A stretch of DNA of 64,000 nucleotides, taken from contig NC_091938.1 in the NCBI RefSeq assembly GCF_041260155.1, positions 18,994,632 through 19,058,631 of the forward strand. The letters run 5' to 3'. This DNA is from Ptychodera flava. Taxonomy: Eukaryota > Hemichordata > Enteropneusta > Ptychoderidae. The translations under genes were made by a program, and so were the position numbers. The notes under the pieces were generated by a model. It searched no databases, had not been told where the DNA came from, and was given only the letters and a program-made list of their open reading frames with translations. This document shows positions 2,226-44,800 of this stretch, piece by piece. Position 1 is the stretch's first letter. Each line of letters opens with the position of its first letter.

Positions 2226-2857
2226 GTAAAACACCGTCCTAGCCAGGGAACTGTGCCAACAGGACAGCGCACGTCGACCACTGGAACTGATCCGTGTGCT
2301 AATTAAGTTGGTAGAACATGGAGGTAGAAAGAAAGTCTTTCATTAGGGAGCTACTGATCAATAGCTTCTAATATAAACAAGGTTCTGATATATTGTCAGC
2401 ACTAGGAACCTATCAAAACGAAAATGTGAAGTCCTTGGACATTTGCTTTCAGAAATATGGAAAATATGGTATAGACGTATTTATCATAACGGTCTATTTA
2501 AGAAAGAAAGTTTATTCTAAAAAGTATGTATGGAACCTCAATGTGTTAAAATACTCCATAAATATACTCCATTTTTTAAAGAATATTAAACTTGATCTGG
2601 AAAACCATAGACTTTAGGGAAACTCTCTAGGGTTAATGTTTCCTTAGGGTCAAGACTAACATATGTGACTTACAAACGGATTAAAGTAAGTATATGTTGA
2701 AAAGCTTTTACTATCAAGATGCCAGAAAGTCAAACAATTTAATTACATTGTGATTTTTCTATATATGATAACTGTTAAAGATTGTTAGTCTTCTAAATCA
2801 TATATTCTCTTCCTGTGTGTAATATTGAACTCATCTGTGTATGGCATTAGTTGTAAT

Positions 2858-2899
2858 TTGTGTGTGTGCGTGTGTGTGTGTGTGCGTGTGTGTGTGTCT
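2858..2899. repeat. (GT)n microsatellite
   Basis: Imperfect GT/GC alternation seen directly. It has no associated gene. Confidence 0.8.
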
Positions 2900-4056
2900 G
2901 TAATGTTAAATGTTTTAAAAAGACGTGTACAAGATTTTTAGTTTTTAATTTAGACTAAACATCCTCATTATGGACGAGTAGTAGATTACCTAGATGATAG
3001 ATCCCCCTAGATGATAGGGAAGAAATCATCATACATAACAGCCAAAATACAACAAACACAACAAAGCTAATAAAAACATGGAACCAAAAAGTAATAATAT
3101 GACCAAAACAACAAAATGCAACATTACCTACAAGTTAAAACTATTCAACAATGAGAGATTCATAAAAACCTTAGCAACACACAAACTCACAAACATTGAA
3201 AACTGCGTGCTTGACAAAGGCTTAAAATTATATATATTAAAACACCTAATCATCCCAATAGAATCAAACTGTTACATAATTACACGAGTACATCTGAAAA
3301 AATGACAATTTTCTGGCTTGTATTGCCGATTGAATACCTCATGTACATACTTGTAATGACCGCAATAATTTAATATGTTAGCAATTGATGGCGATGTTTG
3401 TGATGGTTGTCTATAAGGGGCAGTCACAATACTATAATGGTTGAAAGGTACAAGGTTTCCTTTAAAGGAAACGAGACGAAACCATATTTGAGTCTAGTGA
3501 TAAATAAGTGCCTATTTTTTCCGAAGAGTAGGAAATGTGCCTTAATTAAATTTTAGACACTGATGTTCTGGGAGTTATAACCGCGCATCATACTCTATCG
3601 TGCTTTTACTTTTTGTTTGTGTCGTGTTTTTTGGTTGTCGGGGACTCTGGATGTGCAGCGTGTACATAGGATGAAGGTAGCTTATGAATAAGGTAGGATC
3701 GGAGCGAGCGTACACATCATCCGATACAAAGCTTCAAAAGTCAAAGGCGTGAGATTTGTTTTTCCCGAGAGACGAGTATTCAAAGTCGTGTACACTTGAT
3801 GTAATCTGCAGATCATTCCACCGTGTCTAGTTATCTCAAACAAAATGATACCCCTTGAAAGACAAGTTGGTCGCCAAATTCAGGATTGGTTGGCCACCTA
3901 CCTTAAGCAAGGAAAACCATTACAAACTAACTCTAATAGCCGGAATTATAAAGCTTCTAAATAATCATCACTCCTCCTACATTTGGTCACGTGACAACAC
4001 TCGCCAGATGACGTATTAAATGGTCATCCTTAACAATTCTGTAGACGTTACTAGTC

Positions 4057-17100: not shown

Positions 17101-20100
17101 TAAGGACGCCAATTACTATATTTCCAAAAGGTACACTAATAAAGTAATAATGCTAGTTATCTTTGTATGTCTAAAGTTTATATCCAGATCAGATTAAATG
17201 GCAAACTTTCGGATTCAACAACTCCAAAATAACAATGTTAGGAAGTTAAGATTTACTACTTTGACTTGAAATCTCTCAAAAGGATTCTAATGATGTTTCT
17301 ATTTGTTCTGATTTCCGATGTCAACACAGACACTTCTTATAGTTAAAATGCTGTACTGTGAGATAGGGCAAACTTACATTATTTTACCGTGTTCTAGAGT
17401 ATTTACATAAGGAGTTAATAGTTTTTGCTTCGGTAACCATATCTATTGTAAATGATAAATTAAATTAAATGAATTTACTGGTATGATACATGTACAATAC
17501 AACATAATGAATATCCTTGTACGATATGGTGATTTACTAGCAATTATATTGCACCAGTATCTCATCCTCAACCTCATTCTTAAATGGAACATTTCATGAA
17601 GAAATTTATATTTCAGCTAACTTCCAAAACCAAAGTGTTTGCATGTGTGACCTGCCCACAACAGTTGAGACAGACACGACATCGCTAACCAGTGAAAATG
17701 CCGAAAAAACAACAGTTGCAGATGGTGCCATCTCGACTGCTATCAAAACATATACTTCGCCTATAGAATCATGCTCATTCCGCTACACCAGTTCTAAAAG
17801 AGGGGAAGTTATCAACATCCCCCATTCGTCACGTTTATTATTCATCTGCCGACCTGGATTTGAATTTGCCCACTCCTCGTTGACTCACTTCACTGCTACC
17901 TGCATGGACGGAGACATGTACCCGAATCATGACTCTTGCACAGGTAATTTCAGACTTGCGTTCGTTATATTAAGATTAATAGATTGGTTACCACTGGGTT
18001 CAACAACAAATAGTAATATCGACAAGTACAAGCCATAATGTTCATCTTAATTGGTGCCAACGGCGTCATTTTATTGGGGCTACCTAACTGGCTGAAAGCT
18101 ATTCTTCGTTCTCACTAGTACACGTGTTGATCAAACGGACACGTCGCAAAGGTGTTTTCATTTACAAGTTGAGCTGAATATATATACACAAAATGCATAA
18201 AGAGTGTCGTACAAGATAAAAATTGTTTCGACTTTTTAAAATGAATATTTTTCCAACACTCAATGATTTCAGCTGCTATTAAAATGACTAGAATTAAAAA
18301 GTTTATAAAAAGCATATGCTGTCTAAATACTGCAAGAAAATCGCAGTGTAAAAAGGACGAAAGAAAGATGATTTTGCAGACTACATGGGTGTTGCTGTCT
18401 CATCTACAGACTTCTTTTCGAAATTGGACGACATGAGTTATTGCCTATCTTTGTTCAGTAATGTGGGGAATCTACTACTCGAATGAAATGCATTAGATTT
18501 TGTAATTGTAGATTTGACCTTATTAAAATGTGTTTCTGAGTCTATCAGTATCGTAGAGAGAACATTCTAAACATTAAGGGTAAAATCACATTAAAATTTG
18601 TTTCTAACTATGCCTTCAAGGAAAAGAAGGCTTTTAATCCTTTTTGTTTTAAGTTTTAATAGCTTCCTTAAATTTGTCATTTAGGCTGAAAGTGATATGA
18701 AAATAATTAAATTGACTAAATGTATTTATTGCATTGATTTATCGTGAACAATAATACTTGTTTTATTGTAGTTTAAATGGGCCGGGTTTGAGGCTGTGAG
18801 TGGGACGGTCTCCGGACGAGGCCACTTAATAGTTAATCAGTATTAGTCCGTGGGCTGGAGGGGCCCACCGTGCACCCCCCCCATAACCTACTACATGGGT
18901 ATTTTTTTGTTCTTTGGGATCTGCTGAACTAGAAAAAAGATGTTAACATTGGATATTTTGGGATGCACTACCTGTCTGCACTGGTTTTTGATTTGTATGT
19001 ACCGCAAAAAATGGCGAAAAATGGGTAGGGGTAGGGGGTACTATATCCTCCCCTAAATTGAGTAAACTAGCATGAAATAGCACAAACCTTACATTTTTGG
19101 AAAGCTCAGATACTGCTCTTTCTGAGGAATACCAACTTTAGCAAAATTAATTTGTGTACATAGAGTAGGACGACTTTAAATTGAATTTTTTTGACAATTT
19201 TGAAATTTTTTACCCAAAATACCATGTAACAATTGTGATTTACTTTTTATTAAGCAAAATTTTCACAACTTTTTGTGTTTAAATTATTCATTCCGACATA
19301 TTAAACAAGAAAAAAAGTGTTAACATCAGATATCTAACTATACACTACTTCTCTGGCGTCAATTTTAAATTGCGTGTATCTGTATGGGGTGTACAAAAGC
19401 TGGGGGTAGGGGTACAACATTCTTTCCTTGATGAAGTAAACTGGCTTGAAATGCCATATATCTTATAGTTTTAGAAAGCTTAGATACTGGGCTTTCTAAA
19501 ATGCATAAGTTTTTAGTAAAAAAATATGACGTCATAGAATTGGATAACTTTAAATCGATTTTTTCTGGTAATTCAGCAATTTTAACTGGAAGAAAATATG
19601 ATAACTATTGTTTCCTCCCAATGAAGCAAATCAAACAGATTTATGGATGTTATTTACTAATTGTAATGTGCTGAAGAAGAAAATAAATGTCAAAATTGGG
19701 TATTTACAATGAATTATTGTCTCTACTCACTAAAATTGCAAGTTTTGCTACATTGGTATATCGCGAATGGGCATTTTATTGTTATGCAATGAACTAATGC
19801 ACAGGCACAAGAAGACACATAGTCATATTGCCATTTTCTCCTAAAGTAAATAGATTTTTGATGACTGTCTATTTTTATAATTTACTTTTTAAATATTTTT
19901 TTATAAAATAATTTTGATAAGACGTATTTGGAAAATTGTCTATGCCTCCTTGTCTTACTTATACAGCAAGCATTACTAACAATCTATTAGGCCGTGGGCT
20001 AAAGGGGCATCTACGTGCACCTCCCCCCCCCAACCGCACAGGATAACAAACCTGTATTTTTCAGAAGCCTTGGGATCCCTAGAATAAGAAATAGGATTTT

Positions 20101-23100
20101 AACAGACAAAATATAGGGACTCAATAGCTGTTACGGTCATGTTTTGAAGGGTACCGCAAAATCACGATTTTGTGACCCACATGGATTTTTGTCAAACCTG
20201 TCTTCATGTACGTCATCTGCTGAGCTTACTGTTCAACATGACCTGGCTTATGGGGTATCATTAAAAAGGTGATTTATTCTTCTTGAAAATGGTATATAGC
20301 AATATGCAATATCTTCTATAGTTTTTATGAAGTAGGGCCATAATTTACCCCATACCCCAAAGTTTATGTCGCAAATTACTGTCAAAACTAATCTAAATTC
20401 TACCAATTATTTACCTAGACATAATACAAAGGGCAATGGTGTGTCTTAACTTTGTGTTATTTGCTACAGGTACATGTTAGAAACCTGAAATAAACTTTTG
20501 ACAGAAAAAATATTGGGATCCTGTAGCTGTAATAGTCATATTTTGAAGGGTTCCGCAAAATCACAGTATTACTGAATCACATTCGTTTTTGTTAAACCTG
20601 TCTTCTTGTAAGTCTTCTGCTGAGCTTATTTTGAACATAAAGAGACATATGCGGTATCATTTGAAAGTTAATTTACTTTTCTTTAAAATGATATATTGCA
20701 ATATGCAATATCTTCTATAGTTTTCATGAAATGAGACCAAACTTACCCCATACTCCAAAGTTTTATGTTGCAAGTACAGTCAAAACTAATGTCAAATTCT
20801 ACCAATTATTTTCCTAGACACTTTACAAAAGGCAATGCTTTGTATAAAATATAGTTTATTTGGTACAGGGACATGTCAAAAATATGAGTTTGACGTTTAA
20901 CAGACAAAATATTGGGATTGAATGACTGTTACTTGCATGTTTTGAAGGGTACCGTGAAGTCAGCGTATTACCGACTCGCATATGTTTTTGTTAAATTTGT
21001 CGTCTTGTAAGTCATCTCCTCAGCTTACTTTTTTGTATAACCCAGCTTATGGGCTGTCATTAGAAAGACAATTTATTTGGCTTTCAAATGACATATTGTA
21101 ATATGCAATATCTTCTATAGTTTTCATGAAATAGGACCAAATTTTACCCCATACCCCAAAGTTTTATGTCGTAAATTACTGCCAAAACTAATCTTAAATT
21201 CTACCGACTATTTACCTAGACATTATACAAAGGGCAATGCTTTGTATCAAATTGTTTTATTTGATACAGGTACATGTTAGAAACTCGAAATAAACTTTTA
21301 ACCCAAAAATATCCGGATGCTGTAGCTGTAATATTCATATTTTGAATGGTACTGCAAAATCACAGTATTGCCAACTCGCGTACATTTTCGTTAAACCTGT
21401 CTTCTTGTAAGTCGCCTACTGAGCTTATTTTTTATTATAACGTAGCAAGTTGGGCATCATTAGAAAGTTAATTTACTCTTCTCTAAAATGATATATGCAA
21501 TATGCAATATCTTTTATACTTTTCATGAAATAGGACCACAACTTACCCCATACCCCTAAGTTTTATGTTCCAAATTACAGTCAAACTAATCTCAAATTCT
21601 GCCCTACTATTTACCGGGATATAATACAAAGGGCAATGATTTGTATTAAATTTAGTTTATTTGCTACAGGCTCATGTTAGAAACTTGAAACGAACTTTTA
21701 ACAGAAAAAATATTGTGATGCTGTAGCTGTAACAGTAATATTTTGAAGGGTACCACAAAATCATGGTATTGCCAACTCACATACGTTTTTGTTTAACCTG
21801 TCTTTTTGTAAGTCATCTGCTGAGCTTATTTTTTTAACATAAGTTGGCTATTGGGGTACCATTAAAAAGTTTTTTTCCTTTGATATAACATATTGTAAAA
21901 TACAATATCTTCTTTAGTGTTCAGGAAATAAGACCAAAACTTATCCCATACCCCTAAGTTTATATTGCAAATTACTGTCACTACTGATTTCAAATTCTAC
22001 CAAACTTTTACCTAGACATATTACAAAAGACAATGATTTGTATGAAATCTGTTTTATTTGCTACAGAGACATGTCACAAATATGAGATAGACTTTTAACA
22101 GACAAAATACTGGGATTGAATGGTTGCTGCTGTCATGTTTTGAAGGGTACCGTAAAGTCACAGTCTTGCCCACTCGTATGTGTTTTTGTTAAATGTGTCA
22201 TCTTGTAAGTCATCTGCTGAGCTTACTTTTTACTCTAACCTTATCTCTAACTCTAATCTTATGGGCTATCATTTGAAAGACAATTTTTGCCAAAAAGCGA
22301 CTGACATAATGTAATATTTAATATCTTCAATAGTTTTCATGAAATAGGACCAAAACTTACCCCATATCCCAAATTCGCAAACTGCAAAGTTTTAGAACAG
22401 ATGTAGTTTGCAAATCAAACTAAGGGCTGGAGTGATGAGGTTTTGGCTATTTCATTACAACTTAAGATGATAATGCACTTTATGATATGCTAAAATAAGA
22501 GTGATAAAATCTTTGTAATGATACCCTACAATCTGGGTTATGGACAAAATAAAGGTTGGCAGATAAATTTCATGGAAGTGTTTAATAAAATTTCACGGGT
22601 TTCAGCAATATATCCTGCTATCCTTCAAAATATGATGCTAACAGCTATTAAATCGCAATAATTATCCTGTTAATGGTATCTTTCATAGTTGAAAATGTCC
22701 CTGTAACAAATAAAATAGGTTTCATACAAAGTTTGTCTTTTTTATAGAATTTTTCAAAATTAAATGCTAGTTTTGACAGTAATTTACGACATAAAATTTT
22801 GGGGAATGGGGTAAGATTTGGTCCTATTTCATGAAAACTATAGAAGATATTGTATATTACAATATGTCATTTTAAAGCCAAATAAATTGTCTTTCTAATG
22901 GCAGCCCATAAGCTAGGTTATGCAAGAAAGTAAGCTGAGCAGATGACTTACAAGACGACAAATTTAACAAAAACATATGCGAGTCAGTAATACTCTGACT
23001 TCACGGTACCCTTCAAAACATGCAAGTAACAGTCATTCAATCCCAATATTTTGTCTGTTAAACGTCTAACTCATATTTTTGACATGTCCCTGTACCAAAT

Positions 23101-26100
23101 AAAATATATTTTATACAAAGCATTGCCTTTTGTAAAGTGTCTAGGAAAATAATTGGTAGAATTTGACATTTTTTACTGTAACTTGCGACATAAAACTTTG
23201 GGGTATAGGGTAAGTTTTGGTCTCATTTCATGAAAACTGTAGAAGATATTGCATATTGCAATATATCATTTTAAAGAAAAGTAAATTAACTTTCAAATGA
23301 TACCGCATATGCCTCTTTATGTTCAAAATAAGCTCAGCAGAAGACTTACAAGAAGACAGGTTTAACAAAAACGAATGTGATTCAGTAATACTGTGATTTT
23401 GCGGAACCCTTCAAAATATGACTATTACAGCTACAGGATCCCAATATTTTTTTCTGTCAAAAGTTTATTTCAGGTTTCTAACATGTACCTGTAGCAAATA
23501 ACACAAAGTTAAGACACACCATTGCCCTTTGTATTATGTCTAGGTAAATAATTGGTAGAATTTAGATTAGTTTTGACAGTAATTTGCGACATAAACTTTG
23601 GGGTATGGGGTAAATTATGGCCCTACTTCATAAAAACTATAGAAGATATTGCATATTGCTATATACTATTTTCAAGAAGAATAAATCACCTTTCTAATGA
23701 TACCCCATAAGCCAGGTCATATTAAACAGTAAGCTCAGCAGATGACGTACATGAAGACAGGTTTGACAAAAATCCATGTGGGTCACAAAATCGTGATTTT
23801 GCGGTACCCTTCAAAACATGACCGTAACAGCTATTGAGTCCCTATATTTTGTCTGTTAAAATCCTATTTCTTATTCTAGGGATCCCAAGGCTTCTGAAAA
23901 ATACAGGTTTGTTATCCTGTGCGGTTGGGGGGGGGGGGAGGTGCACGTAGATGCCCCTTTAGCCCACGGCCTAATAGATTGTTAGTAATGCTTGCTGTAT
24001 AAGTAAGACAAGGAGGCATAGACAATTTTCCAAATATGTCTTATCAAAATTATTTTATAAAAAAATATTTAAAAAGTAAATTATAAAAATAGACAGTCAT
24101 CAAAATCTATTTACTTTAGGAGAAAATGGCAATATGACTATGTGTGTGCGTTTTAAAGTCTTCTTTTTCAGCCTGTGCATTAGTTCATTGCATAACAATA
24201 AAATGCCCATTCGCGATATACCAATGTAGCAAAACTTGCAATTTTAGTGAGTAGAGACAATAATTCATTGTAAATACCCAATTTTGACATTTATTTTCTT
24301 CTTCAGCACATTACAAATAGTAAATAACATCCATAAATCTGTTTGATTTGCTTCATTGGGAGGAAACAATAGTTATCATATTTTCTTCCAGTTAAAATTG
24401 CTGAATTACCAGAAAAAAGCGATTTAAAGTTATCCAATTCTATGACGTCATATTTTTTTACTAAAAACTTATGCATTTTAGAAAGCCCAGTATCTAAGCT
24501 TTCTAAAACTATAAGATATATGGCATTTCAAGCCAGTTTACTTCATCAAGGAAAGAATGTTGTACCCCTACCGCCAGCTTTTGTACACCCCATACAGATA
24601 CACGCAATTAAAATTGACGCCAGAGAAGTAGTGTATAGTTAGATATCTGATGTTAACACTTTTTTTCTTGTTAATATGTCGGAATGAATAATTTAAACAC
24701 CAAAAAGTTGTGAAAATTTGCTTAATAAAAGTAAATCACAATTGTTACATGGTATTTTGGGTAAAAAATTTCAAAATTGTCAAAAAAATTCAATTTAAAG
24801 TCGTCCTACTCTATGTACACAAATTAATTTTGCTAAAGTTGGTATTCCTCAGAAGAGCAGTATCTGAGCTTTCCAAAATGTAAGGTTTGTGCTATTTCAT
24901 GCTAGTTTACTCAATTAGAGGAGGATATAGTACCCCCTACCCCTACCCATTTTTCGCCATTTTTTGCGGTACATACAAATCAAAAACCAGTGCAGACAGG
25001 TAGTGCATCCCAAAATACCAATGTTAACATCTTTTTTCTAGTTCAGCAGATCCCAAAGAACAAAAAAATACCCATGTAGTAGGTTTATGGGGGGGGTGCA
25101 CGGTGGGCCCCTCCAGCCCACGGACTATATTGGCTTCGACCTCAGAGCGTTCCCCCACCCTCCTCCCTATCCTACTAGCTTGCAATTGAATTTTTAACGT
25201 TTGTCCACAAAGCTATTGTTCCCGCCAACGAATAGCAACAATGTCAGACAAAGCACAAAGTTTCCGCGAATGGTGTGAGGCAGCAGGCCTAACGGAGGAT
25301 ACACATGACGTGCTAACTACACAAGGCATCCCATCAACCGATGTCCTGAAGCGTCTCAACAATCAAGACATCATCGGACTTATTCTGCCTATAGGCCAAC
25401 GCAGACTGCTCCGCTGGGCATGGAACAACTTAGACGCAAAACCGGCAAAACAACAGGCACCTCAAGACCAACCTACACACGGGACAGAAACATCAGGGGC
25501 GACTACAAAGTCCCTTGCCAAAGATGAAGAGCTGAACAAACTCCTCGAAGCTTTCAGCAACGACGCGCTAAAAGACATTGTATCGGACCAGCGCATCACA
25601 TCCCAAAATCTAGTGAAGGATGAGCGTAAACCATTACTGATTCCGGACCATATAACCACAAAGGCTGCTTCGCTGGACTCTTCCGACGAGACGGAACTAG
25701 CAGCGGAAGGGGACATGAAGCTAGTTATGCGGACCGCCAAGCGTAGACCGAAACCTGACCAAGTTTCCCTTCCTCAGTGGATATCAGCCAACGCCCGAAT
25801 TTTAAAGACATTGATTAACCGCGGCATGTCCACGAAAGACACATTTGCGTACCTCGATCACACAATTAACATCGGGGATTACGCACAATCTTTTACGAAA
25901 TCATCAGTTTTATCGTATGATCACGAGTATCGCAAGAAACAGGCGACGGACTCCGATCACATGGGGTTCCGGGACCTCCATTTATCACTGTATCACCTTG
26001 ATAAATGACAGGCAAACGGAAATACGCCGAAGAAAAACACTACGAAGGACACTGCGCGCCGCAACTTTGTCACACGAGAAACCGAAATCTGCTTTGATTT

Positions 26101-29100
26101 CCAAAAACCAACCGGCTGCAACCGCACTTCCTGCCGTTTCGCGCACGTGTGCATAGAGGAAGGCTGCTGCAAAGACCACCCATAACACCGCCACAATTCG
26201 CTGCTCAGCCAAGAACTGGGTGGTCAAGCCTAGCATAAGGTAGCTAGCCCTCTGACTGATTGCCTGGAAAAATGGGAAAACGAACTCAAATACGACATGG
26301 ATCGCGACTTCATTCTAAACGGCATAAAATACGGTTTCGACATCATCGACCCTGGCACCCCCCTTCAAAAAGTGGAACGATCGAACTATGCATCATGCAC
26401 TGATCCAGCTTACTGCCAGGCGGTCGAACAACAAATTTTACACGAGATATCAGCAGGAAATTACAAGATCACGAACAGTAAACCGCACATTATAAGCAGC
26501 CTCGGTGCTATACCCAAGAAACAATCAAACAAGGTTAGGGGAGAACCATTTGATTTCGGGGGGGGGGGTATGGAGGAAGAGGGTATGGGAGCAAATTTTT
26601 TTTCCTGTCAGAGTGACAGCAATTTTTTTTTTCTACTGTCAGACCTGCATCAATTTTTTTTTCCAAATGGAGTAGCAGTGCAATTTTTTTTTATTGGTCA
26701 TCAAGTTTGTAATGCGTTGTATATAAGGGAGCCGTCATTATTGACGGCCTGAAACTCCGAAATTTCGAGTGACCCTCCCCCCTTCACCAACCATGATGAA
26801 TTTGAGTAACCTTCCTCTCTAACTCTGAAATTTTGACCATTCCCCCCTTAGAAAAGTTAAATACCAATACATGTAATTGTAAAATTTACAAAATACAGCA
26901 ACAGTAAAGACCCTTCAAATCCTGATGTGCCCTGCTAGACTATCATCAGTTATCTCATGATGGTTCAAAAAAGGTGAACACATCAAAATGAAATTCAAAG
27001 TCACAATAAAATAAAGATATAAAACATCACGCAGTATCTAATCATATAGTATATTGTTTAATTTGGATGGATATTATGACAGGGTTTTCACTAGGATATC
27101 TGACCGGGCAGAATTTGAAAGTACAGGGGGAGAACATGAGAGAGGCTTAGGGGGAAAGTGTCACAGGGGCTTTCCCCTATCTTGCATGGAAATTGTTAAG
27201 ATATTGATGTGTGCAATGGTGCAGTCTGGTGCAATCTGAGAGGTTTTTTAATTTGTTTACTAAGTGAAACTGTTAGAATACCCCAAGGGGGAGAGCACGA
27301 GAGGGGGTTCCCCCCTCGTATTGGAAATTTTGAGAAATTGATGTGTTTAATGGTGCAATCTGAGAGGAGTTTCAGTTTATGTTGCACTCGGTAAAACTGT
27401 TTGAAAATGACATTGAACACTGATATTTTTTACATTTTTTGCATGATCAGTTTTTGAGTCTCAATATTCAACAACCAAACAATGACAATACAATTTGTGA
27501 AAAACAGTTCTGTTTGCCAGAGACTGAAGACAAATATACAGGAACGGAAAATCTGTGACCTTCTTGTGTCATTTCTCCAGCTGCCAGCTTCTAATGAAAA
27601 GCCTGAATATGGTATGTTTGCGATCCGGTGTTTGTGGTCAGAAAAACAAGGCTCACACATTGTATTTCATTATATTTTTTTTCCTCAATTTTTCATTGTC
27701 AAGGTACATCTTTCTGACAAATTTATATTGAGAAAATAATATATTGGTTTTAACACTAGTTTATTGACTCCTGTCTTGTGTTTTAAATTTTCACAATTTA
27801 CAGAAGTCAAATAGTCCCCTTTAGATAGTGCCTATGCCATTGAGATATTGCAACAGAAATCCTGAAAATGATTTCTTGGGTCAGAAAATGGAAGGAAAAC
27901 ATTGAGTGTACTGAGGTGTAAAGTAGACCTATGTAGTGCATGCTTATATCATAAGTGCTGGGAAAAGAAACATAAGAATTGCTTGTGGTAAAACATTTGC
28001 GCCGCCTATGGCGGCGCGCCGGCAAAGAATACATGAGAATAAGGTTTCCAAATTTTGCTTATTTCTGGTGCATTGTGACAATTTTTTTTTCTCTTCTGTC
28101 TGTTATGACAATTTTTTTTCTCAGGCCATGACAGGATCAATTTTTTTTTCTTCTCTCTCACCTGGTGACAATTTTTTTTTTCTCAAAATCCTCCATACCC
28201 CCCCAGAAATCAAATGGTTCTCCCCTTAGACTCATTCACGATTGCAGCCAACCTACCGGCAAAAGCGTGAACTCATATGCATCTACAAACTCGTTCAAAT
28301 ATGAAACTATCGATCACGCTGTCGCTATGTGCAAGCCAGGATCGTACCTGGCCAAAGTCGACCTGAAATCCGCTTATCGCTCTGTACCCATAAGTATTGA
28401 CTCACAGCGTGCTACGGGCCTACGTTACAAATTCACGCAGCATAAAACTTAGACATACATGGTCGACACACGCCTTCCATTCGGTGCAGCGAAGAGCCCG
28501 GCAATTTTCACTCGCATCACGCAAAGTATTACAAGAATGATGCGCAGGAAAGGGTATGATGTCGTCATCGTGTATCTCGACGATTTCCTAATCATCGCGG
28601 ACTCTAAACTAGCGTGCGAACAAGCCTTTAACGCCTTGCAACAACTACTTCAGCAACTTGGCTTTTCCATAAACTGGGATAAGGTGGTCGAGCCTACGCA
28701 ATGCTTAACATTCCTAGGGATCGAGATAAACGCGCACACACGGACTTTGTCCCTAGACGGTACCAAGCTACAAGAAGTAAGTGACCTCCTGGAATATTGG
28801 CTTCCAAAGCGGCGAGCGACGAAACGCGAGCTTCAGCAATTAATCGGCAAACTCAACTGGGCGGCAAGAGTTATTCGCGGCGGGCGCACATTTTTGCGGC
28901 GACTCATCGATGTGACAAATTCGGTCTCACGACAGGTTCATCACATACGCCTTAACAGACAAGCGAGAGCGGACATCAGCTGGTGGGCGAATCTCATATC
29001 AGCAAATCTTTTAATGGTACGGCCCCAGCAGATTTTCACCACTGACGCATGCTCAGCAGCGGGAGCGGGCATTTACGCGAATGACTGGTTCTACACACGA

Positions 29101-32100
29101 TGGTCAGCGGACCACCCAACTACTGCGGATGCGCATATCAACCTCAAGGAACTTTACACCGTCCTGCTTGCGTGCAGGCGGTGGCATCGTTTCTGGGACA
29201 AACGCCACATAGTGGTATACACGGACAATACCACCACCATGTATATAATAAACTCTGGCACGTCACGCAATGCAACAGCCATGGAGCGGCTACGCGAACT
29301 CTTCTGGCTGTCGGCAATCTCCAACTTTCAGATTACAGCCAGATATGTCAGAACTAATGATAACGACGCGGACTCCTTATCGCGCCTGCACGAAATTAAA
29401 CACTACTTCAGAGCTTTAGACACCCTGCAAAGTCGCGAGGCACACCCTTTACAGGAATGGCACTACCATATGTCTGTTTCCACACACTCCTTATTGCTCC
29501 AGGACCTTTGTAGTAAGAACTTTACAAACTAAGTAACATGCACGGACTCTTTTAACGACAATGACGCTATTTCCAGGGCGCCGGAGGGCTAGCGCCTACT
29601 ACTAGTGTTGGGAGCTTTTGGCGGAAATCGGCTCATAGCCTGTCAACATTGGAATAAGGGGTGGACCATTTGATATCCTGGGGGGGGGGCTTGGAAGATT
29701 GGTGGAGAGCCATTATTTTTTTTCCCACGTGCTTCACCATGAATTATTTTTTTTCTACAGGGCATATGCTGGCAACTTTTTTTTTTCACTTTCCTTCTTC
29801 GAGATATATTTTTTTTTTACCAAATTTCGGTGCAATGTTTGTTTGCTTGGTTTTTCACACCCAGTAACAAGATGCTGTTCTATCGCACACAGACTATATT
29901 CAAGAAACTAAATAAAGATATGTAAATACATGTACATTTTTGATTCACTTTACAAAAACATATTTGTAAAATCATGTACATTTATGGCATTTACTTGTTA
30001 TTGTTGTCCTTACATTGAAAGTAGCCGGGTAATTTAAGAAAGTAGATGGGTAGACTGCGAGGGAGCGAAGCGACTGAGTGGCGAGTGAGCGTAGCGAACG
30101 AGGGGGGGGGAAGAGCGCGAGAGGGGGGTGTCCCCCCTCTGCAAGGCGAAAAATGAAATTTTGGAGTGGAAATGGTTTTCTCTGGTGGCATCTGAGGTGA
30201 CATTTACAGACTGAAACAGTACTTTTGTTGTGTGTCTTAGACGTGGCTCACATACAACAAAACAAACAAACATGATTTTGTTTTGTTTGTATTATTTATG
30301 ACACACTTATGGTTTTATTTGCAGTGAAGATGTAACATTTAATCTTAAAGCACCTGCTGTCTGCTCATTTCATTGCCCATTTCCCATTCTTCATTACCAC
30401 ATAGTAGTTTCCCCAAAACCATCAAACTCATTCAATTCTAATCAAAACACATTCGCTTTTGTTAAGAAAAACATTGGTAAGATAATTCACTATAACAGTG
30501 TTCGCATTTACGAATAAAACATGCGTATATAGAAAACTCATAACAATGAAAAAATGTGTAGAGAGTCGATCCAATGCGTTATAATATTACGCATTGGATT
30601 GAGTCTCTACGCATTTTTTCATTGTTATGAGTTTTCTATGCGCAAACGATAATAGTAAAATGTTTGCAGGCTGTCTCTCTTCTTGTGGTATTTTGACAAA
30701 ATCCTTACATTCAGATTTTTATGACACATTTCTGGAAAACACTGGTGAGCAATTTCAATTTCAGCATACTTCATCTAATCAGAAGGTCATGTATACTGTA
30801 CAATTGTTCATATTCAGTTATTGTTCCTCAAGCTTGAAATGGTTTATGCTTTATAAAACTCTAGAGCTACTGCTTGATTTTTATTGATGCTGCAGTGTGC
30901 ATCGAACAATTGCCAAGATTTTTTTTTTTTCCGAGTCGCAATGGTCCATTATTTTTTTTCCATCAGCCACCTAAAGCCAGATTTTTTTTTTCGAGCAACT
31001 CCACCTGGCATCTTTTTTTTTCCCCCAAATCTTCCAAGCCCCCCCCCAGGATATCAAATGGTCCACCCCTAAGTTGTTGACCTTGACCCCCAACACTTGC
31101 GTCTGTCTGTATGTTGTCAGTATAGGCATCATTTAAGTGAACAATAATACTTGTTTTATTGCAGTTTAAATGGGCCGGGTTCGAGGCTGTGAGTGGGACG
31201 GTCTCCGGACGAGGCCACTTAATAGTTAATCAGTATTGGCTTCGACCTCAGAGCGTTCCCCCACCCTCCTCCCTATCCTACTAGCTTGCAATTGAATTTT
31301 TTTTTCTTCTTCTTTCTTTCTGCTTTCGTCTTTGAATATGTATCTTATTACGCCTAGAGTGGCGGAAATCGGCTCATAGCCTGTCAACATCGGAATAAAG
31401 TTGTTGACCTTGACCCCCAACACTTGTGTCTGTCTGTATGTTGTCAGTATAGGCATCATTTAATTCCTAAATATGGCAAGGTCATTTCTATTTACTAAAA
31501 GTGGTTTGTCAAGAAGAATGTGCGTTAACTTTGGTGATATGATGTTTACAAATGAATGTAAACTGTACTAACAACTCTGTCAGCGCGAAAAAAGTCATAG
31601 TTACCAATACCACTGGCCAGTTCTAAACTACCATTATTAGTTAGCCAAGTTTTCTGCAAACTCAACAAGTCTAAAGACGTAACGAAATTTTAAAAAAAAT
31701 CTGAAAGTTTGGTAGCCCATTAATATTCCAGCTTTCTGTGCTTATTGCTTTAGAAAATAGCATCGGATGAAATAGTGCACACTCACAAAACCAGTTCCGA
31801 TCAAGCGTTGCCGTCGGTTGATGACTTTGAATATTTTTGTTTTTTTTCTATACTTTTCTTACAATTTCGCCACCTAATATCGATTGAAAAGTGCATAGTG
31901 AAGCCTAAAATTTGCAGAACATTTTGAATTAGAAGGCACTTTGAGACAAAAACAGATAAGAGTCATCAAAAAGCGGGATCGAAAAATAGCCCATTCTTTA
32001 TTTAAATGCAGATATCGACGAGTGTGTAGGTGGTCGAAATAAGTGCGGTCTCAACAGACAATGTCAAAACACAATCGGTAGCTACAAATGTCGTTGTATG

Positions 32101-35100
32101 GATGGATACGGCGAGGAGCATGGAGTCTGCATACCTTCTGGCCTTCAACCTGCCGAGGAAGTATACAATGATAAAATGGGTAAATCATCTCGGTTTTGAT
32201 CTTCCTTTTGAATGATATTATTAAAATTGATATTCTAAAATTGGATAGATACATGCCATTTTGATCAATGAAATCATCCTACAATTATGAAGTCTATTTT
32301 AAGAAAGTTGTCGCATATGGTGTGGAAAATGACAATGGGTAATACGGTACAGATGGCAGAGTGTAGAAAACACAAGTACTATTTTCACCTTCAGTTTTGA
32401 TAATTGTTTAAGAACACTACATTTTTTCATCATATTAGGTCCACGCAGCCTCATTTATAAAATATACATTATCAAGGACAGAAGCATTGCAATTTTCTTT
32501 TACAGTGGAGTTCTTAAATGAATGATTTTTTGATTGTGTGAACGCAAAAGTGCATTGCATGCTAAGAAATGAAGAGACACAACGACATATTGATCAAACA
32601 TGCCGAGAAAACACAAGGACCCAGACTCTTTTTTAGAGAAAGAATTACATGTAATCTTGCCAATTACTTTAAAACGCAGTATAGGGTCATAACTTCTCGA
32701 ATACGATTTGCGATATAATTGGGTACCGGGTCTTTTGTAAATTTGTCAACATGATAACAACAGTACCATGAAAGTTCTTGAAAGCCTACGTGTAAGACAA
32801 AAGAATCTTAACACTGCACTGCATATGGGTAAGTCCTAATCAATATAAATAACACTCAAAATCGATTGATAATTTTTTGGTTTATCCTTGATTCAGAAGC
32901 CGAGGGTAGATTTTGCAAAGAAACTCAGGATGGGATTTGGGAAGCAACTTCAGCTAACAACTTTTCCCAGTTGAAAGCCTGTGAAGGTGATGCAACAGGT
33001 ATGTACTGTGTTCTAATCGTTATTCTTGCCCTTCGCACGTTTTGTGACAATTTTCTGGTTAAAATGTGATTTGCCACAAAGACAACCATTTGTTAAATGG
33101 ATTTGAAAGTCTTTATATGTTCGATTTCTTCTTTCGTTAAATAAAAAATAATAATATTTATTCTCCTCTATATGCCAACAGAACATAACAAATAAAAGCC
33201 AAAACTAACAGGCTCGGCAAGCCTCGTCATTAAATTTTTGTTTTTCCTCTCGCACTTGCCCATAAATAAACGTTAATCGTCAGGGCGTCGCCCATTATTT
33301 CTATAGTATATATATCAAAAACATATTCTTCACACAGGTTTGATTTTTTAGCCGAATTGTAGGTTAACATTTGATGTTTATTCACAGGTTACATGAGACG
33401 GTATTGCAACGTCAATGGTGAATGGGAAACACCGGACACAACTGATTGTCGGACAAAGGAAGTCACAGACTTCGCAGAAAAGGTTTGAAATTCAGTGAAT
33501 CATGCCATAGTTTCGGTAGATTTTTGTAATTTGATGTTTTATTCCATATAATGTTCCAGCTAAGGCCCAACATGTGGCAATTAGAAATCTAGACTAACTA
33601 CAATAAAACACACAACACAGTGTTGCAGTAAAACACTGGTCATCTGGGGTGCAGGGAATAAGATTCCCGACTCCAGACGCCAAGGAAAAAACCCCGGGGA
33701 AAAAAGGGGGAGAAAAAGGGAAGGAAAAATCAAACAAACAACTAACAACAACACCAACTACTACAATCAAAATCTCGGTAAAAGGGTTGCAGGTGGCTAA
33801 CAGTTTTTGGCTACACTTCTGCAAAATTACTCAAGCCATGAGACACCATTTTGGCGACTTGTGTACGTTGACTAAAAGGTCTAGCAAGATAAACTAGTGC
33901 TGCCATTGAAGACCAGTCACCTTGTAACTGAATCATTTCAAGAGAGGCTCCACACTGGTGAGCAAAGGTAGCCCCTCCACGGCGAAGACTGTGACCTGAA
34001 TACTGTGATGCATTGTGACCTGTGAGGTTGACCCAATCTTTAAGGGTCTTGGCAAACATAGCATGGCTGATGGGCTGTGTCTTTTGGCCCACTGTAGTAA
34101 GAAAGGCTGGGGAATGCACATCAGTTTGGAATTGCCTAAAATGATGCTCTACGGCTGCAACTGCACACAGGGGTGAACCTGGTGTACGAACTACAGGTAC
34201 AAGCAAAGTACGTTCGCCAAATTGAATAGTCTTGGTCCATTTGGCTTTAATAACCATGCCCCACTCGAAAATGAAGACATCCCCCCTGGATAGGTGACAA
34301 TCAACACTGAATTTAGCCCCTGAAGGTGGTACGAGATTTGACTTTCTGAAAAAGGTTTGAAAGCCAGTTAAAATGGCGGCCCAATAACCGGAGTTGACTG
34401 GCAATAGAACATTCACTTTAGAAAACACCTGCATAAGCATGCTAGGGGTAATCGCTAGTTTTCTTGATGGCTCGTCGCCTAAAAGACGGCGAATACCCTT
34501 CAGTGTACATTTGACAATATAAGAATCATGAAATTGTGGATCTGGGTAACCAAGTTCAAGGTGCAGCTTGCGAACTGCACTCATGTAATTAACTATAGAT
34601 GAGTACTTCCTGTCCCTCGCAAGGTACACTAAATACAAACAAATAAGTTCTGTTGAAGCTGGGAGCGGGTCCTGTTTTAGTTTCATACAAAACAGCAAGA
34701 AGGACTTCCACTGGGACTTACGAGTCGAGGTAGTTGCAGTAGCATCAGTGTTCTGCCTGAAGACACTCCACTCCTGGTATAGCTCTTGCCGAAAACTCTC
34801 TGAAAGAAAAGTCATTATTGTGGCATGGTGAGTGTCTGAAAACGTTGCCACTGATTTGGTTCACACAGCCGAGATAGTGCATCAGCAATATTGTTGTCGG
34901 CACCTTTGATATGACGGGCAGTAATATGAAAATTGTTAGTAGCTGACAACCAGAACAATTCACGTAGCCAGCCCATAGCAATGACATTGTGACATGTTCC
35001 CTTATTGATAAAGGCGATTGTTTGCGTATTGTCTGAATAAATAACAACATGTTGATTTTCCCACTCGCGAGACCATTTCCTTGCCGCAAGCAAAATGGGG

Positions 35101-38100
35101 AACAGCTCTAAATAATTGATATTACTTGAAACTTCAGTCGGAACATGAACTCGGTTCCACCAAGGCAATTCTCTGATCTCACTTGGTTGAGGGACAGCAT
35201 CAGGATGCCACGCCCCTGCTACCCAGTTACCCTGGAAATATACCCCATAACCTGAAAATGAGGCATCAGTCTGTAAAACACACTGTGGTAATGGTTCATT
35301 ACGGATGATTTTTGCTTTGCCATTGAAGTTTGTAGCAAAGTCTAACCACCACTGTAAGTCTTTGCGAAACTCTTTACTAATTCTAATCTTGTGATGAGGA
35401 CGTTTGAGTTTGTTCATCAAATCAATGATACGTCTCGTAAATGTACGACCACCTTTGACAACGGTAGCGGCAAATGACAAAATACCGACAAGCGATTGCA
35501 AATGTCTTTTAGTTAGCTTGCGTTTTGAAGACACAATAGTTAACTCTTTGACTTCAGTCTGGCTAGCTTATCTTGAGGTAGCCTAACTTCCATTGCAATT
35601 GAGTCTAGTTCGATACCTAAAAATGTAATAATCTGTGCAGGTCCGCGCACCTTGGACCAACTGATATAGAAACCCAGATAACGTAAAAGACGAATCAGTG
35701 TACGTTGTGCTTGTAAGCAATCATCGTACGATTTGCTGATGAGAAGGAAATCGTCTAAATAGTTCACAATAGTAAAACCACGTTTTCTCATCATACGTGC
35801 GATGGAGTTCGAGACGCGAGTGAAAATACTAGGTGCACAGGAGAGACCAAAGCAAAGACAATTGTCAATGTAATATAGGTATTGCTTAGCATCATGAGGT
35901 CCGAACATCCATTTGAAGCCTTGCAAGGTGCGGTGCTTGGGATGTACAGGTATAGACCTATACGCCTTTGAAATGTCCACGATAGCAAAATAACAATTTT
36001 TGGACATACTGTCCATCACATTGTCGATCGAGCTGTAGCTGGTTTTTGGCGGGGACATGTGATCGTTGATTGATTTGCCTAATGGTCGAGAGCAGTCTGT
36101 TATAGGCCTATAATCATCAGAGTCTTTTTTGGGGACAGCCCCATAGGCGTGCACACAATGGGGTTTCTGTGACCCCTGACATGAAATTTTCCCTTGTTCA
36201 AGTTCGGACAAAAAGAGTTTATCCAGCTTAGGTTTGACTTCTGCATTGGTGGCTGATTTGTAATTGTCACACTCGTACCTTTTAATGTGATTGGTATCAT
36301 CCACTATCTTAAAGCCATGCCGAATGCCGTCAAGTAAAAAATCTTTGTCTGGGTCGTCGGCTAGTTCATTTTCCCAAGCGTGGGTATTCAGCTGAGACCA
36401 TGGTAATGTATAGCGTTGAGAATCATCGACTACGTTAGCGTTCACCGTTGGCGGAACCTTAGTGTCAAAGTGTTCACACAAAGTAGCATTTTTTGTAACT
36501 CCAGACGGGATGTACAACACAGCGGTGTTGTCAAGGTCATCAAGACAGTGCTTTTGAAAGTCATTTCCGTTCTGACAAGCAGACTTGACTTGGCTTGAAT
36601 TATCACAGAGTGTTCACTTATCAGTCTTTTTCTTGCTCTCCGCCGTTTTCTTGGTATATGTGGTACAATCATCTTTTCGGTGACCGTGTTCGCTACATAG
36701 CAGGCAAACATGGGCATAACGACATTGTGATGAGTTGCAAATCCCGGTGTTGAAGCGTATACAAGCGTTTGTTTTGTCGTCTTTCTTCCCCGTGGAGGAT
36801 TCTTTCCCTTTACGAGTACGAAATCGTGCGAGAGTGTCACTTGGGCCAAAAGCGACGTTGTTAGCATCTGAATTTGAAGGCCCCCATTTGGCACCTGTAC
36901 ACTCGAGGTCGTCACGGTACGTGTTGTCATATAACATGCAGGCACTGGCTTTGTATTTATTTGCTTTACTGGCGATGAAAGCAAGGTGCTGAACGTAGCC
37001 CCGAATTTCGTCTGATTTCTGGTCGACCAGAATACTTAAAATCTTCATATTTCCTTCCCAGAATTGAGCCCAAGTGATTTCATCAAACCCTTTCGCTGGT
37101 TTGCCGTTTTCAAGGCGAATGAATTCATGAGGCCGTGGTACAGATCGACGTTTTGGCGCGAAAGTTGTAGCATTGCAAATGTTATTGAATTTTGAAAACT
37201 CACCAGCTTCGCTTTTCGATGACGTTGGAAGGCGACTCAGTAACTGTTCTATATTATCCAGTTCCTGTAGTGAGGGCACATCACTTTGTGGCTGATTCTG
37301 ACCTTTCTCCCGTTCGCTGGGGTTCATGTTCTCAACGTCGACACGGTTGGCCGACGCGCCAAATTTGTCATCGATGGCTGAAGTTTTGGCGGGCTGAGCT
37401 GCGGTCGAACCGACTGATGGTGGATGACCCGTTTTCTCCATCTTCCTGGTTCTAGGTGTACTCGCCTCATCGGTAGTCTGTAAGGAAGTAACCGCCTCAC
37501 GTACTAGACAGCGCTGCCCAGGCAAAATATCCAAGTCACGAAGATCTTGTTCTTGTATCGCGGTTCGGAAGGTAGTGAAGCCATTCCGAACAAGGCATGC
37601 GATGGTATCTTCAGACAGACCAAATTCATCCTTTGCAAGTTTCTCCATTCGTGTCAGTTCTGATTCAATCGGTTGAACTGCCTCTGATGACGATGGCTTC
37701 GTTACTCTTCGACGACTCCTGGCAATTTTTGTCGTCATTTTATTGATAACGCATAAACTTCTAAAGCTGAACAAGACTCACGCCGTACAGGCAAACAGAT
37801 ACAAATCACGTGACCAACTATAAAACGTCATCTTGAATAATCAGGCTCATTATAATATTATAAGCAGGCTTATACTACTCACAAAATGGTCATATTACCT
37901 ACCGTTAGGTACAAAAATAACGTATTGTCTCCATAATAATTACAACTTAAATTTCTATTTCAGGTTAGCGATGTGAACAGTACAGCCGATGCGGTCTTAC
38001 TTTTGAATGCCCTAATCGACATCCACAACTCGCAGAATCATTTTCATGGTGGTGATTTGCTTCTGTTAAGTGATATCATGCTCACAGTAGCAGCAACTGT

Positions 38101-41800: not shown

Positions 41801-44800
41801 TTTCTGTCTTCTCCCGTTAATTCTTTTGTAGCTCCTAATCTTAGAAACTATCGCTCACATCATTACAAAATGTCACACCGTGTTAGGAGAAGTGCGTATT
41901 ATACATGTACTTCAATTGATCACCTAACCTGGCGGCCATGTTGAATTTGTGATAGTCATGAAATTACGTCTTTTCAAAAACAACAGGGCCAAATCACTTC
42001 AAATTCTTTGGCAGAATGCTATCACTTGGTCTACTAAAATTTGCAAATAAGTCGTAAGAGGTCACATGTCGTTGGCCGCCATATTAAATTTTCGAAAAAT
42101 TTCAATAAATCTGTGGAAATCTTCTCTCTTGAACACAGTGAGCCATGTAACCTAATTTGGCTCACACCATTACCAGTGGGAATGCTTGCAGACTTGTATT
42201 AGGATTCACTTCAATTTGACCGCAATATTTCCATAGACGTAAAACCAATGATAACAATGAAATAATAAAAAAAAATCTTATTCATCAGATTAAGCAGGCC
42301 ATTTGACCCAAATAGACAAGTATGGCACCAATGTTTTGCTAATTTTGGATGACGTTGAAATACTGTATCATGTAACTAAGTAACTACAGGAGTTCTGTTT
42401 ATTATAGACCATTATGTAACAAAAACGTTTTTCAAAAATTTAAGATGACCTTTGACCTACTTTCACATGTCTCAGCAACCATGGGAGCTAGAGGTTTTTT
42501 TTGTTAGATAATGACTAGTTGGAGAAAATTTTCCCAAAAACGTTAGATGACGTTGGATGAACTTTGAACTACTTTTCTATATATTAGCAACTGCAAGGAC
42601 ATTAAGGCTAAATTTGTCTCCAAGCTTTTTGAATGACTTCTGCCCTACTTTCCTTTATCTCGGCAACCACAAGAATTAGAAGTAGATGTAAATTACCTAC
42701 TACTCTAGCTCATCACTTTGAAGTACGACTCATTAATTATGCGCATACATAATTGAAGGCGGACAAATGGGGATAGACATCTTGTTCCACTTTCATATGG
42801 AACACTGTGAACCACAATTCCAAGCGTAGAAATTAGGCTTTTATTGCAAATTAGTATCCTGCTTGGGCCCCGGTAATTGCGCCTGCAGCTTAATTCTTCT
42901 TTCTCTCCTTCTTCCTCTTCCACCAATTCTTTATCAGCCTTGATTCACCGAACCATTTAGCTTCTGAAGCTTGGCACATGGCCCAGGGTCTCTTAAAACA
43001 TTTGAAAACATGGTCATGTGACCTGGAAGCCATATTGCATTTCCCAAATATCTTAAAATGGCTTCTCATGAACCAAAGAGCCAATGAACGCGAAATATGG
43101 CTTGTGCCATACAGGCCTCATACCCTTTAAAGTTTGCCCTTAAGATTTCAAGCGGTCACATTACTTTGGCCCCCATATTGAATTTAAGGGAAACACCATT
43201 TAATTAACAAAATTCTCTTATCAAGAATTGGCAGGCCATTTACGCTGAAATTTTGCCTATATCGTCACTAGTGTGAGTATTTGAAAGATTGCAAAGTCAT
43301 TTCAGTCGATAACTTCGGTTTGTTGTCATATTTCTGTTTGCGAAAAACCTGCAGTCATCATCATGATATAATATTTAAAAAATCTCCTTCTACGGTACTG
43401 AAATACCATTTTGAGGTCAAATTTTGCCCCTATTATAGCTGAGGAAGTGCTTACAATTGTGCAAAAGGCATTTTAAGTGCTTTCACAGCCATTATAGAAT
43501 AATAAGCATGAGGTAATATCGAACAATCCTCTGCACCAGAACACACGAACTAATGACAAGTATGGCATCAGAATGTTCTGAGATGATTTTTAATGAGCCT
43601 TGACCCACTTTCAGATATCTTAGCAAATACAATGTCCAGAAGTTTGCTGTAAGTGGGAATTTGAGTAGTATGGCACCAAATATTTCTTCCAAAATTTTGG
43701 ATAACCTGGACCTGCTATCATATATCATTGTAATTAATCTCATAAATTATCTGCATATGTAATTATTATCTAAATGATAGGGCGAAAGATATTGTTTCCT
43801 TGGATATAGATCGGACAAAAAGTTTGTTCAGGTTCTTGTATGATATTTGCAAAATCACACATCTCAGAAATATACATGCTTTAGTGTAGTTCTGTTATGA
43901 AATGCTATGAGGCAGATCCTCAATGGCTTTCAGTCTAATATTCAATTCACGGTATGAATTAGGTAAACGTCTAACTATCAGATGAATATTTACAGCCATA
44001 AACAAATCGATAGTTGTTGCATTAAAGTCGTTTACATTGAACCGTTGACAGTATGGGAGCTAGACATACTATCTGAATTTAAGAGTTGCCAACACTAATA
44101 TAACAAAATCAACTCTGTGAAACCTGAAACATTGTCTTGAATGAGGTAACGAGTTGTCAAAAGAGCACCGGAAATCCACGCACACCCTGCTCGTAATACA
44201 TCACTTGCAAGAGTTATTTGTGCGGTTGTTTTGGCTACGTCTGATCTCCTTCCTACGGTGGCCCAAAACTACCTGTTCTCCGCATTCAAAGTCTGCGTCG
44301 CATTCAATTGTTTTTCTCTCACATATGTCTCCGCATTCAAAGTCTGCGTCGCAATCAAATGTTTTTCTCTCACATAAGCTTATGTCTCCGCATTTAAAGT
44401 CTGCGTCGCAATCAAATGTTTTTCTCTCACATATGTCTCCGCATTCAAAGTCTGCGTCGCAATCAGATGTTTTTCTCTCACATGTCTCCGCATTCAAAGT
44501 CTGCGTCGCATTCAATTGTTTTTCTCTCACATATGTCTCCGCATTCAAAGTCTGCGTCGCATTCAATTGTTTCTCTCTCACATATGTGTCCGCATTCAAA
44601 GTCTGCGTCGCAGTTAATTGTTCCTCTCCTAGATGGGCCACAGGCGGCCCAAACACTATTAATAAGCTTATTATTGAGTTTTCTCAGTTTTCTCTATCAG
44701 TTCTTCTCCCTTTCTTCACGCTCTGACTGATCGTAGGAAATAAAAAGAAATTACTTTATAGCCTAACCTAGCCTCTTGACTCTTTATTTATTTTACACCC

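What the first reader, a model, noticed from the sequence alone, without database searches (positions are those of the whole stretch)
26538..31069. Four phased T-tracts at each end of two sister transposons, all on the same strand
Both elements carry four runs of 8-12 T at 27-33 bp steps (about three helix turns) at each end. The terminal repeats are inverted, but the T-tracts have the same polarity at both ends. Helically phased tracts should bend DNA, and the fixed polarity would break the symmetry of the ends. I know no description of this in Harbinger-like elements.
Basis: partly seen in the sequence, partly recalled or inferred. Interest (0 to 1): 0.75.

Follow-up and report, generated by a model that had tools for sequence, protein, structure and literature searches.

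The report
T-tract arrays at transposon ends
Two related non-coding jumping elements end in mirror-image repeats, but just inside each end both keep four evenly spaced runs of T on the same strand, which looks more like a spaced row of protein docking sites that could tell the two ends apart than like simply bent DNA.

Summary
E1 (26538-28225, target duplication TTA) and E2 (29658-31069, TAA) have inverted terminal repeats of about 38-43 bp and, directly inside them, four runs of 8-12 T per end, 16 of 16 on the + strand, at steps of 30.5 +- 1.1 bp. Among all A or T runs of 5+ in the 64 kb these four arrays are the only chains of three or more at 26-34 bp. Tract number, spacing and distance from the tip agree between E1 and E2, while the spacers are 26.6% identical ungapped, about chance. 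So tracts and ruler are kept while most of the sequence between them is not. The bending idea is not supported: of four arrays only E2 left stands out, and only in one of two wedge models. The fixed polarity is real but, being probably inherited, is close to a single 1-in-2 fact. No further copy was found in what I could search (no host genome held), so conservation rests on two neighbouring elements. Best reading: a polar subterminal binding-site array, working like the subterminal repeats of hAT Hermes. New variant of a known kind; Harbinger membership rests mainly on the target duplication and is unproven.

The parts
26535..26537 (.). E1 target-site duplication, left copy (TTA)
   Evidence: joining the flanks with one TTA gives an open RT frame
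26538..26577 (+). E1 left terminal inverted repeat with G11 run
   Evidence: 36 of 41 aligned columns equal to the right end (three gaps in the G run, one base beside it, one at the inner edge)
26596..26692 (+). E1 left array: four T tracts (T8, T10, T9, T9), 58 bp between tip and first tract
28082..28181 (+). E1 right array: four T tracts (T9, T8, T9, T10), 44 bp between last tract and tip
28189..28225 (-). E1 right terminal inverted repeat
28226..28228 (.). E1 target-site duplication, right copy (TTA)
29655..29657 (.). E2 target-site duplication, left copy (TAA)
   Evidence: uninterrupted relative of the site at 31360-31463
29658..29700 (+). E2 left terminal inverted repeat with G10 run
   Evidence: 42 of 43 columns equal to the right end
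29716..29818 (+). E2 left array: four T tracts (T8, T8, T10, T10), 58 bp between tip and first tract
30919..31021 (+). E2 right array: four T tracts (T12, T8, T10, T9), 48 bp between last tract and tip
31028..31069 (-). E2 right terminal inverted repeat
31070..31072 (.). E2 target-site duplication, right copy (TAA)

Best explanation
E1 and E2 are non-autonomous DNA transposons whose ends consist of two modules with opposite symmetry: an outer inverted repeat of about 40 bp, and inside it an array of four sites in direct orientation at a step of about 30.5 bp. I infer that each site (T8-12, preceded by 1-3 A in 14 of 16 and followed by C in 14 of 16; in E1 also CAA and often TGACA before it) is bound by a DNA-binding protein of the transposition machinery, so that four protomers line up about three helix turns apart on each end. 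Because the sites keep one strand while the repeats are inverted, the protein row would face inward at one end and outward at the other, which could let the complex tell left from right and favour left-right pairing. The stiff T tracts may also keep the ends free of nucleosomes. Shown: anatomy, spacing, polarity, agreement between two families with diverged spacers. Inferred: binding, end identity, nucleosome effect, and that the elements moved by cut and paste.
For: Bases between tip and tract agree between families: left 58/85/116/146 and 58/89/119/151, right 44/76/106/135 and 48/78/110/139, although the six matching spacer pairs are 26.6% identical ungapped and their alignment scores do not exceed shuffles (p 0.21 left, 0.25 right; 0.65, 0.30, 0.27 with ends trimmed). 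Inside the arrays E1 and E2 share one 33-bp blastn match, so it is the ends that are held. Inverted likeness runs to about bp 38-43; bp 46-160 of the two ends resemble each other directly (scores 29 and 25, null -0.2 +- 4.3 and -0.2 +- 4.5), much more than inverted (in E2 mostly the tracts themselves). In E1 CAA precedes 8 of 8 tracts (CAAA in one), and TGACA/TGTCA occurs in 6 of 10 spacer or flank pieces, reached by none of 500 shuffles (best 4-mers p 0.008-0.04, 6-mers 0.02-0.09). The left array lies 9.5-13 bp further in than the right one in both families. Precedent: Hermes BED domains need a short motif followed by an AT-rich stretch, Hermes sites are asymmetric between ends, and symmetrised LE/LE ends were inactive (PMC10368747, passages and section 8).
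Against: No protein is known: 10 of 10 interior frames scanned gave no Pfam hit. E2 shows no shared flank motif (p 0.57-1.00), so the E1 motif is not common to both. Only two elements, side by side. Gapped spacer identity is somewhat above shuffles (77% against 67 +- 4%), all 36 E1-by-E2 spacer pairs together were above shuffles before trimming (p 0.001; 0.56 after one base was trimmed at each side), and E1 spacers resemble each other, so part may be duplication. E1 left and right spacers also match in the inverted sense (p 0.004-0.022 over all pairs; 0.06 for the three mirrored pairs). The Hermes precedent is not clean: restoring asymmetric sites did not rescue LE/LE, right-end repeats were not seen bound, and a donor with mutated inner left-end sites kept about 70% activity. 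In mPing/mPong the authors see no shared internal sequence and doubt sequence-specific roles of internal regions (PMC9921582).
Confidence: 0.5

Rival explanations
1. Nucleosome-excluding spacer: four long poly(dA:dT) tracts keep each end open so the transposase reaches the TIR; no protein reads the tracts and polarity is incidental.
For: The A/T-run load per 147 bp at the four arrays is reached by 0.1-0.3% of windows of the 64 kb, the arrays' own windows included. [quoted passage not shown]
Against: Does not need a 30.5 +- 1.1 bp step, exactly four tracts, or one strand at both ends. No nucleosome model was run.
Confidence: 0.22
2. Historical leftover: a roughly 30-bp unit was duplicated in tandem and one array was copied to the other end in direct orientation; tracts persist by slippage and gene conversion, not by function.
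For: E1 spacers are alike within and between ends (p 0.001 untrimmed; 0.002-0.006 with one base trimmed); Tandem Repeats Finder sees a 31-bp period at 26590-26664; tandem repeats in subterminal regions are on record in Medicago PIF/Harbinger elements (PMC2213677, passages).
Against: With the shared CAA removed the E1 likeness weakens (p 0.03-0.10, then 0.05-0.31). E2 spacers show little (p 0.07-0.59), yet 8 of 8 E2 tracts are uninterrupted and in register with E1; neutral decay should interrupt tracts and shift spacing.
Confidence: 0.16
3. Intrinsic curvature: helically phased A-tracts bend each end to help synapsis.
For: The mean step is close to three turns (phase coherence 0.87 at 10.2 bp against 0.38 for random steps); E2 left is strongly curved in the Bolshoy-type model (110 degrees, 99th percentile).
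Against: Three of four arrays are ordinary for the window in that model, and four of four lie below the 90th percentile in the other. The A/T stretches are 9-13 bp long, about a full turn, at one per three turns; from general knowledge such tracts bend weakly.
Confidence: 0.07
4. RNA-level signal: directional T runs act as RNA polymerase III terminators or polypyrimidine tracts of splice acceptors.
For: T runs are directional on RNA and all on one strand.
Against: AG within 20 bases downstream in 11 of 16 tracts, against 64% of all positions in the elements, so no clear enrichment; no tRNA gene and no Rfam match at the gathering threshold in the window. RNA data were not available.
Confidence: 0.05

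Closest known systems
hAT transposon Hermes, subterminal repeats (PMC10368747; passages and section 8 seen)
   Same: Short sites repeated inside the TIR; about 220 terminal bp needed in cells; sites arranged asymmetrically at the two ends; the binding motif must be followed by an AT-rich stretch. LE-STR2 to 7 are antisense and RE-STR1 to 5 sense; if both ends are read from the tip inward, that is the same absolute strand, as here (my inference).
   Different: 8-bp target sites and BED-finger motifs AAG(T/C), 17 and 14 per end and crowded towards the tips; here the duplication is 3 bp and the sites are homopolymer T tracts, four per end, on a regular ruler.
PIF/Harbinger superfamily: mPing/Ping/Pong and zebrafish Harbinger3 (PMC2836001, PMC9921582; passages seen)
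   Same: 3-bp TSD (TTA/TAA, recalled for the superfamily), non-autonomous short forms moved in trans; a Myb-like ORF1 protein binds the TIRs of Harbinger3N_DR.
   Different: No T-tract array is mentioned in the passages I read; E1/E2 show no recognisable transposase or ORF1 remnant in the frames scanned.
Medicago PIF/Harbinger subfamily MtPH-A6-4 (PMC2213677; passages seen)
   Different: 60-bp repeat units, 2-35 of them, in opposite orientation where both ends have them; here four tracts per end in the same orientation with unlike spacers.
Coral CMITE elements (PMC2872659; abstract and first quarter of the text seen)
   Same: Short non-coding TIR elements of an animal with unusual inner conservation.
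   Different: Linked to piggyBac; no phased T tracts in the part that I read.

Membership tests
PIF/Harbinger | 3-bp target-site duplication, TTA or TAA | tested here: met
   TTA for E1 and TAA for E2; empty-site evidence for both (the E2 relative has one extra A)
PIF/Harbinger | Terminal inverted repeats starting with G (recalled) | tested here: met
   GGGG at four of four tips
PIF/Harbinger | G(N)5GTT at the TIR tip, used to mine Medicago elements (PMC2213677) | tested here: not met
   E1 GGGGAGAAC, E2 GGGGTGGAC; a condition of that plant set, not of the whole superfamily as far as I recall
PIF/Harbinger | DDE transposase of the family in the element or an autonomous partner | tested here: inconclusive
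   No Pfam hit (E up to 1) in 10 of 10 frames scanned, out of 37 stop-to-stop frames of 45+ codons overlapping E1 or E2; host genome not held
PIF/Harbinger | Myb-like/SANT ORF1 protein that binds the ends | not testable with these tools
   no host genome held
hAT (Hermes-like) | 8-bp target-site duplication | tested here: not met
   3-bp duplications; it may work like Hermes ends but is not filed as a hAT
Intrinsically curved transposon end | Predicted curvature clearly above background at each end | tested here: not met
   1 of 4 arrays above the 95th percentile in one model, 0 of 4 in the other

The most novel reading that the evidence does not exclude
A kind of transposon end in which left/right identity is written as strand polarity of a homopolymer ruler: four T tracts three turns apart, in direct orientation inside inverted repeats, kept across families whose intervening sequence has turned over, and read by a dedicated protein or by the remodelling machinery of the host.
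Probability: 0.22. Interest if true: 0.65.

Novelty: new variant of a known kind. Interest (0 to 1): 0.42.

Why it matters
How a two-fold symmetric transposase complex tells its two ends apart is, as far as I know, open for most eukaryotic cut-and-paste elements outside a few such as Hermes. Ends with an inverted module and a direct, evenly spaced module would be a simple natural test case: flip one array and ask which pairings still work.

Tried and rejected
Looking for further copies. Of these 142 loci, 4 have a G run of 6+ within 250 bp inside the motif (L013, L033, L079, L124) and 0 have three or more A/T runs of 7+ there (a first pass was). A looser pattern gave 2 stretches, both without a T array. 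Of the 152 loci held from these three scans, 5 have a chain of four or more T8+ tracts at 26-34 bp (L190, L214, L221, L236, L261) and 7 others contain ACCATTTGAT, with no overlap; one search had looked at only 113 of the 152. No match of bp 26538-26720 in phage records. The other TIR pairs with equal TTA/TAA duplications in the window (7 of 9 rows) carry no array of 5+ runs.

Splice-acceptor and Pol III readings. Polarity swap in silico lowered the predicted bend in 8 of 8 array-by-model comparisons, but T-to-A in place fuses the tract with the A's before it in 14 of 16 cases, so I do not count it as evidence that polarity matters for bending.

Weak points of my own tests: wedge parameters are recalled, not from a call; spacer tests were run in several versions and all are given; the TGACA motif was noticed before it was tested, although the shuffle test takes the best k-mer of each run; the word DIRS-like is my label from the mix of RT, RNase H and tyrosine-recombinase-like domains.
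Full report
What is there. Two elements with clean boundaries: E1 26538-28225 (1688 bp, TSD TTA) and E2 29658-31069 (1412 bp, TSD TAA). E1 interrupts the reverse-transcriptase frame of a DIRS-like retrotransposon (my label): the flanks joined with one TTA read on in one frame...GAIPKKQSNKVRLIHDCSQPTGKSVNSY..., resembling GAVPKKDSDDYRPITDCSRPLGKSINDH of the second such element at 33811-37777. The downstream part of the split frame matches RVT_1 (2.2e-15). E2 sits in a repeat whose uninterrupted relative lies at 31360-31463 (GGAATAAAGTTG against GGAATAA-E2-TAAGTTG; one A differs). The ends of each element match inverted: 36 of 41 columns in E1, 42 of 43 in E2; between the elements 34 of 44 (left) and 33 of 43 (right). 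Inside the arrays blastn at E 0.01 finds one shared 33-bp piece, so E1 and E2 are sister families alike mainly at their ends.

The arrays. 16 of 16 tracts are T on the + strand, 8-12 long; 14 of 16 are preceded by 1-3 A and 14 of 16 followed by C, so the uninterrupted A/T stretch is 9-13 bp. Steps centre to centre: 28, 30.5, 30 | 29.5, 29.5, 31.5 | 31, 31, 32 | 31, 31, 30.5. Outside the arrays the window holds 199 T runs and 209 A runs of 5+, so there is no strand bias around. An exhaustive chain search at 26-34 bp finds no other chain of three or more with runs of 5+ or 6+; with runs of 4+ there are eight others of three to five runs, two of T and six of A.

Conserved ruler, mostly unconserved spacers. 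Bases between tip and tract: left 58, 85, 116, 146 (E1) and 58, 89, 119, 151 (E2); right 44, 76, 106, 135 and 48, 78, 110, 139. The six matching spacer pairs are 26.6% identical without gaps. Alignment-score tests at matching positions: p 0.21 (left) and 0.25 (right) untrimmed, 0.65, 0.30 and 0.27 with end bases trimmed. Against this, all 36 E1-by-E2 spacer pairs together exceeded shuffles untrimmed (p 0.001), which disappears when one base is trimmed at each side (p 0.56), and gapped identity is 77% against 67 +- 4%, so a weak remnant cannot be excluded. In E1 the spacers are alike within and between ends (p 0.001 untrimmed; 0.002-0.006 one base trimmed), partly through the shared CAA before each tract; with that removed p is 0.03-0.10, and trimmed further 0.05-0.31. 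E1 also has TGACA/TGTCA in 6 of 10 pieces; counts are 3 in 144 bp at the left, 4 in 137 bp at the right, 7 in 1348 bp between; E2 has none in its end regions. The simplest account is that tracts and ruler are under constraint while the rest drifts, with some duplication or homogenising inside E1.

Polarity. The TIRs are inverted, the arrays direct. Bp 46-160 of the ends: direct scores 29 and 25 against -0.2 +- 4.3 and -0.2 +- 4.5; inverted -9.5 and -20 against -20.0 +- 3.5 and -24.7 +- 3.3, so E1 also has some inverted likeness. Since both families probably inherited the arrangement, it should not be counted as 16 independent coins: within an array tandem origin explains equal strand, and left-versus-right is one 1-in-2 event. 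What makes it notable is that it is kept, together with a left/right offset of 9.5-13 bp.

Bending. Two wedge models (parameters recalled; a phased A6 control bends 104 and 85 degrees, a 15-bp-spaced one 21 and 11) place the arrays at 34, 73, 99, 76% and 16, 76, 89, 39% of 320 background windows. Mean coherence of tract phase is 0.82-0.87 at 10.0-10.34 bp per turn and 0.71 at 10.5. So spacing near three turns is real, while strong curvature is not predicted in general. That the mean step falls near a whole number of turns is itself only a modest coincidence. Tracts of about one full turn are, from general knowledge, stiff rather than curved; this favours a rigid or nucleosome-free end, or a protein ruler.

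How it most likely works. A DNA-binding protein of the machinery docks on four equal sites per end, about three turns apart. PIF/Harbinger elements split binding (Myb-like ORF1) and cutting (TPase) between two proteins (PMC2836001, passages). The Hermes work shows that a subterminal site can be a short motif plus an AT-rich stretch, that the sites differ between ends and that symmetrised LE/LE ends are inactive; it also reports that restored asymmetry did not rescue LE/LE, that right-end repeats were not seen bound and that a donor with mutated left-end sites kept about 70% activity (PMC10368747, passages and section 8). In this picture E1's TGACA/CAA-T9 is motif plus stretch. This is inference; no protein has been seen here.

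Membership. TSD and G-rich tips fit PIF/Harbinger; the transposase test is inconclusive and the plant tip motif G(N)5GTT is not met. I call the elements Harbinger-like, unproven. hAT is excluded by the TSD length.

Literature. Nine searches on the terms Harbinger, subterminal, poly-T, A-tract, T-tract, phased A-tracts, bent DNA, Myb-like, mPing, nucleosome and on the tip sequence in both directions listed no paper that I recognised as describing T-tract arrays in such elements; two searches returned none at all. Judged from titles and abstract openings, with several lists cut at 20 rows; only open-licence papers are held, and Repbase, where such families may be deposited without comment, could not be searched.

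Limits. The host is unknown and no genome is held. Everything on conservation rests on two neighbouring elements.

Noticed in passing
L214 2469-2630; L168 1824-1901 (minus strand); L174 7356-7397: Phage-like contigs with same-strand T8-9 tracts near C/G runs: six tracts at steps of about 31, 29, 31, 31, 32 in L214, 200 bp beyond the end of a terminase large subunit gene on the other strand (2828-4045, phrog_2, 1e-49); three at about 35.5 and 34 in L168, beside a terminase gene (1-1335, phrog_2, 1e-39) on the same strand; two in the similar L174, whose genes I did not annotate. Possibly packaging sites. Found by searching for this very pattern in a very large collection; no relative of the L214 stretch in the phage records.
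   Followed up: partly
30529-30639: Near-perfect 111-bp palindrome inside E2 (arms 55 nt, 93% complementary, 1 nt apart); folds as one hairpin, z -18 against shuffles. Perhaps a nested foldback element.
   Followed up: partly
25190-31463 and 33811-37777: Two DIRS-like retrotransposons (my label) in opposite orientation: one with an integrase-like frame (Phage_integrase, 7e-5, below the curated cut-off), one broken by E1 and with E2 in a repeat next to it.
   Followed up: partly
44277-44622 and 45769-46683: 51-bp tandem repeats, 6.7 and 17.8 copies, with the unit in opposite orientation in the two arrays; open in several frames.
   Followed up: no
20097-22232 and 22769-23861: 399-bp tandem repeat units, 5.3 and 2.7 copies, 77-78% matches.
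   Followed up: no
27149-27362 and 30107-30139: G-rich module (GGGGGAGAGCACGAGAGGGGG and kin) present in E1, there as two copies of about 80 bp that are 75% alike, and once in E2; the only inner sequence shared by the two elements at blastn E 0.01.
   Followed up: no
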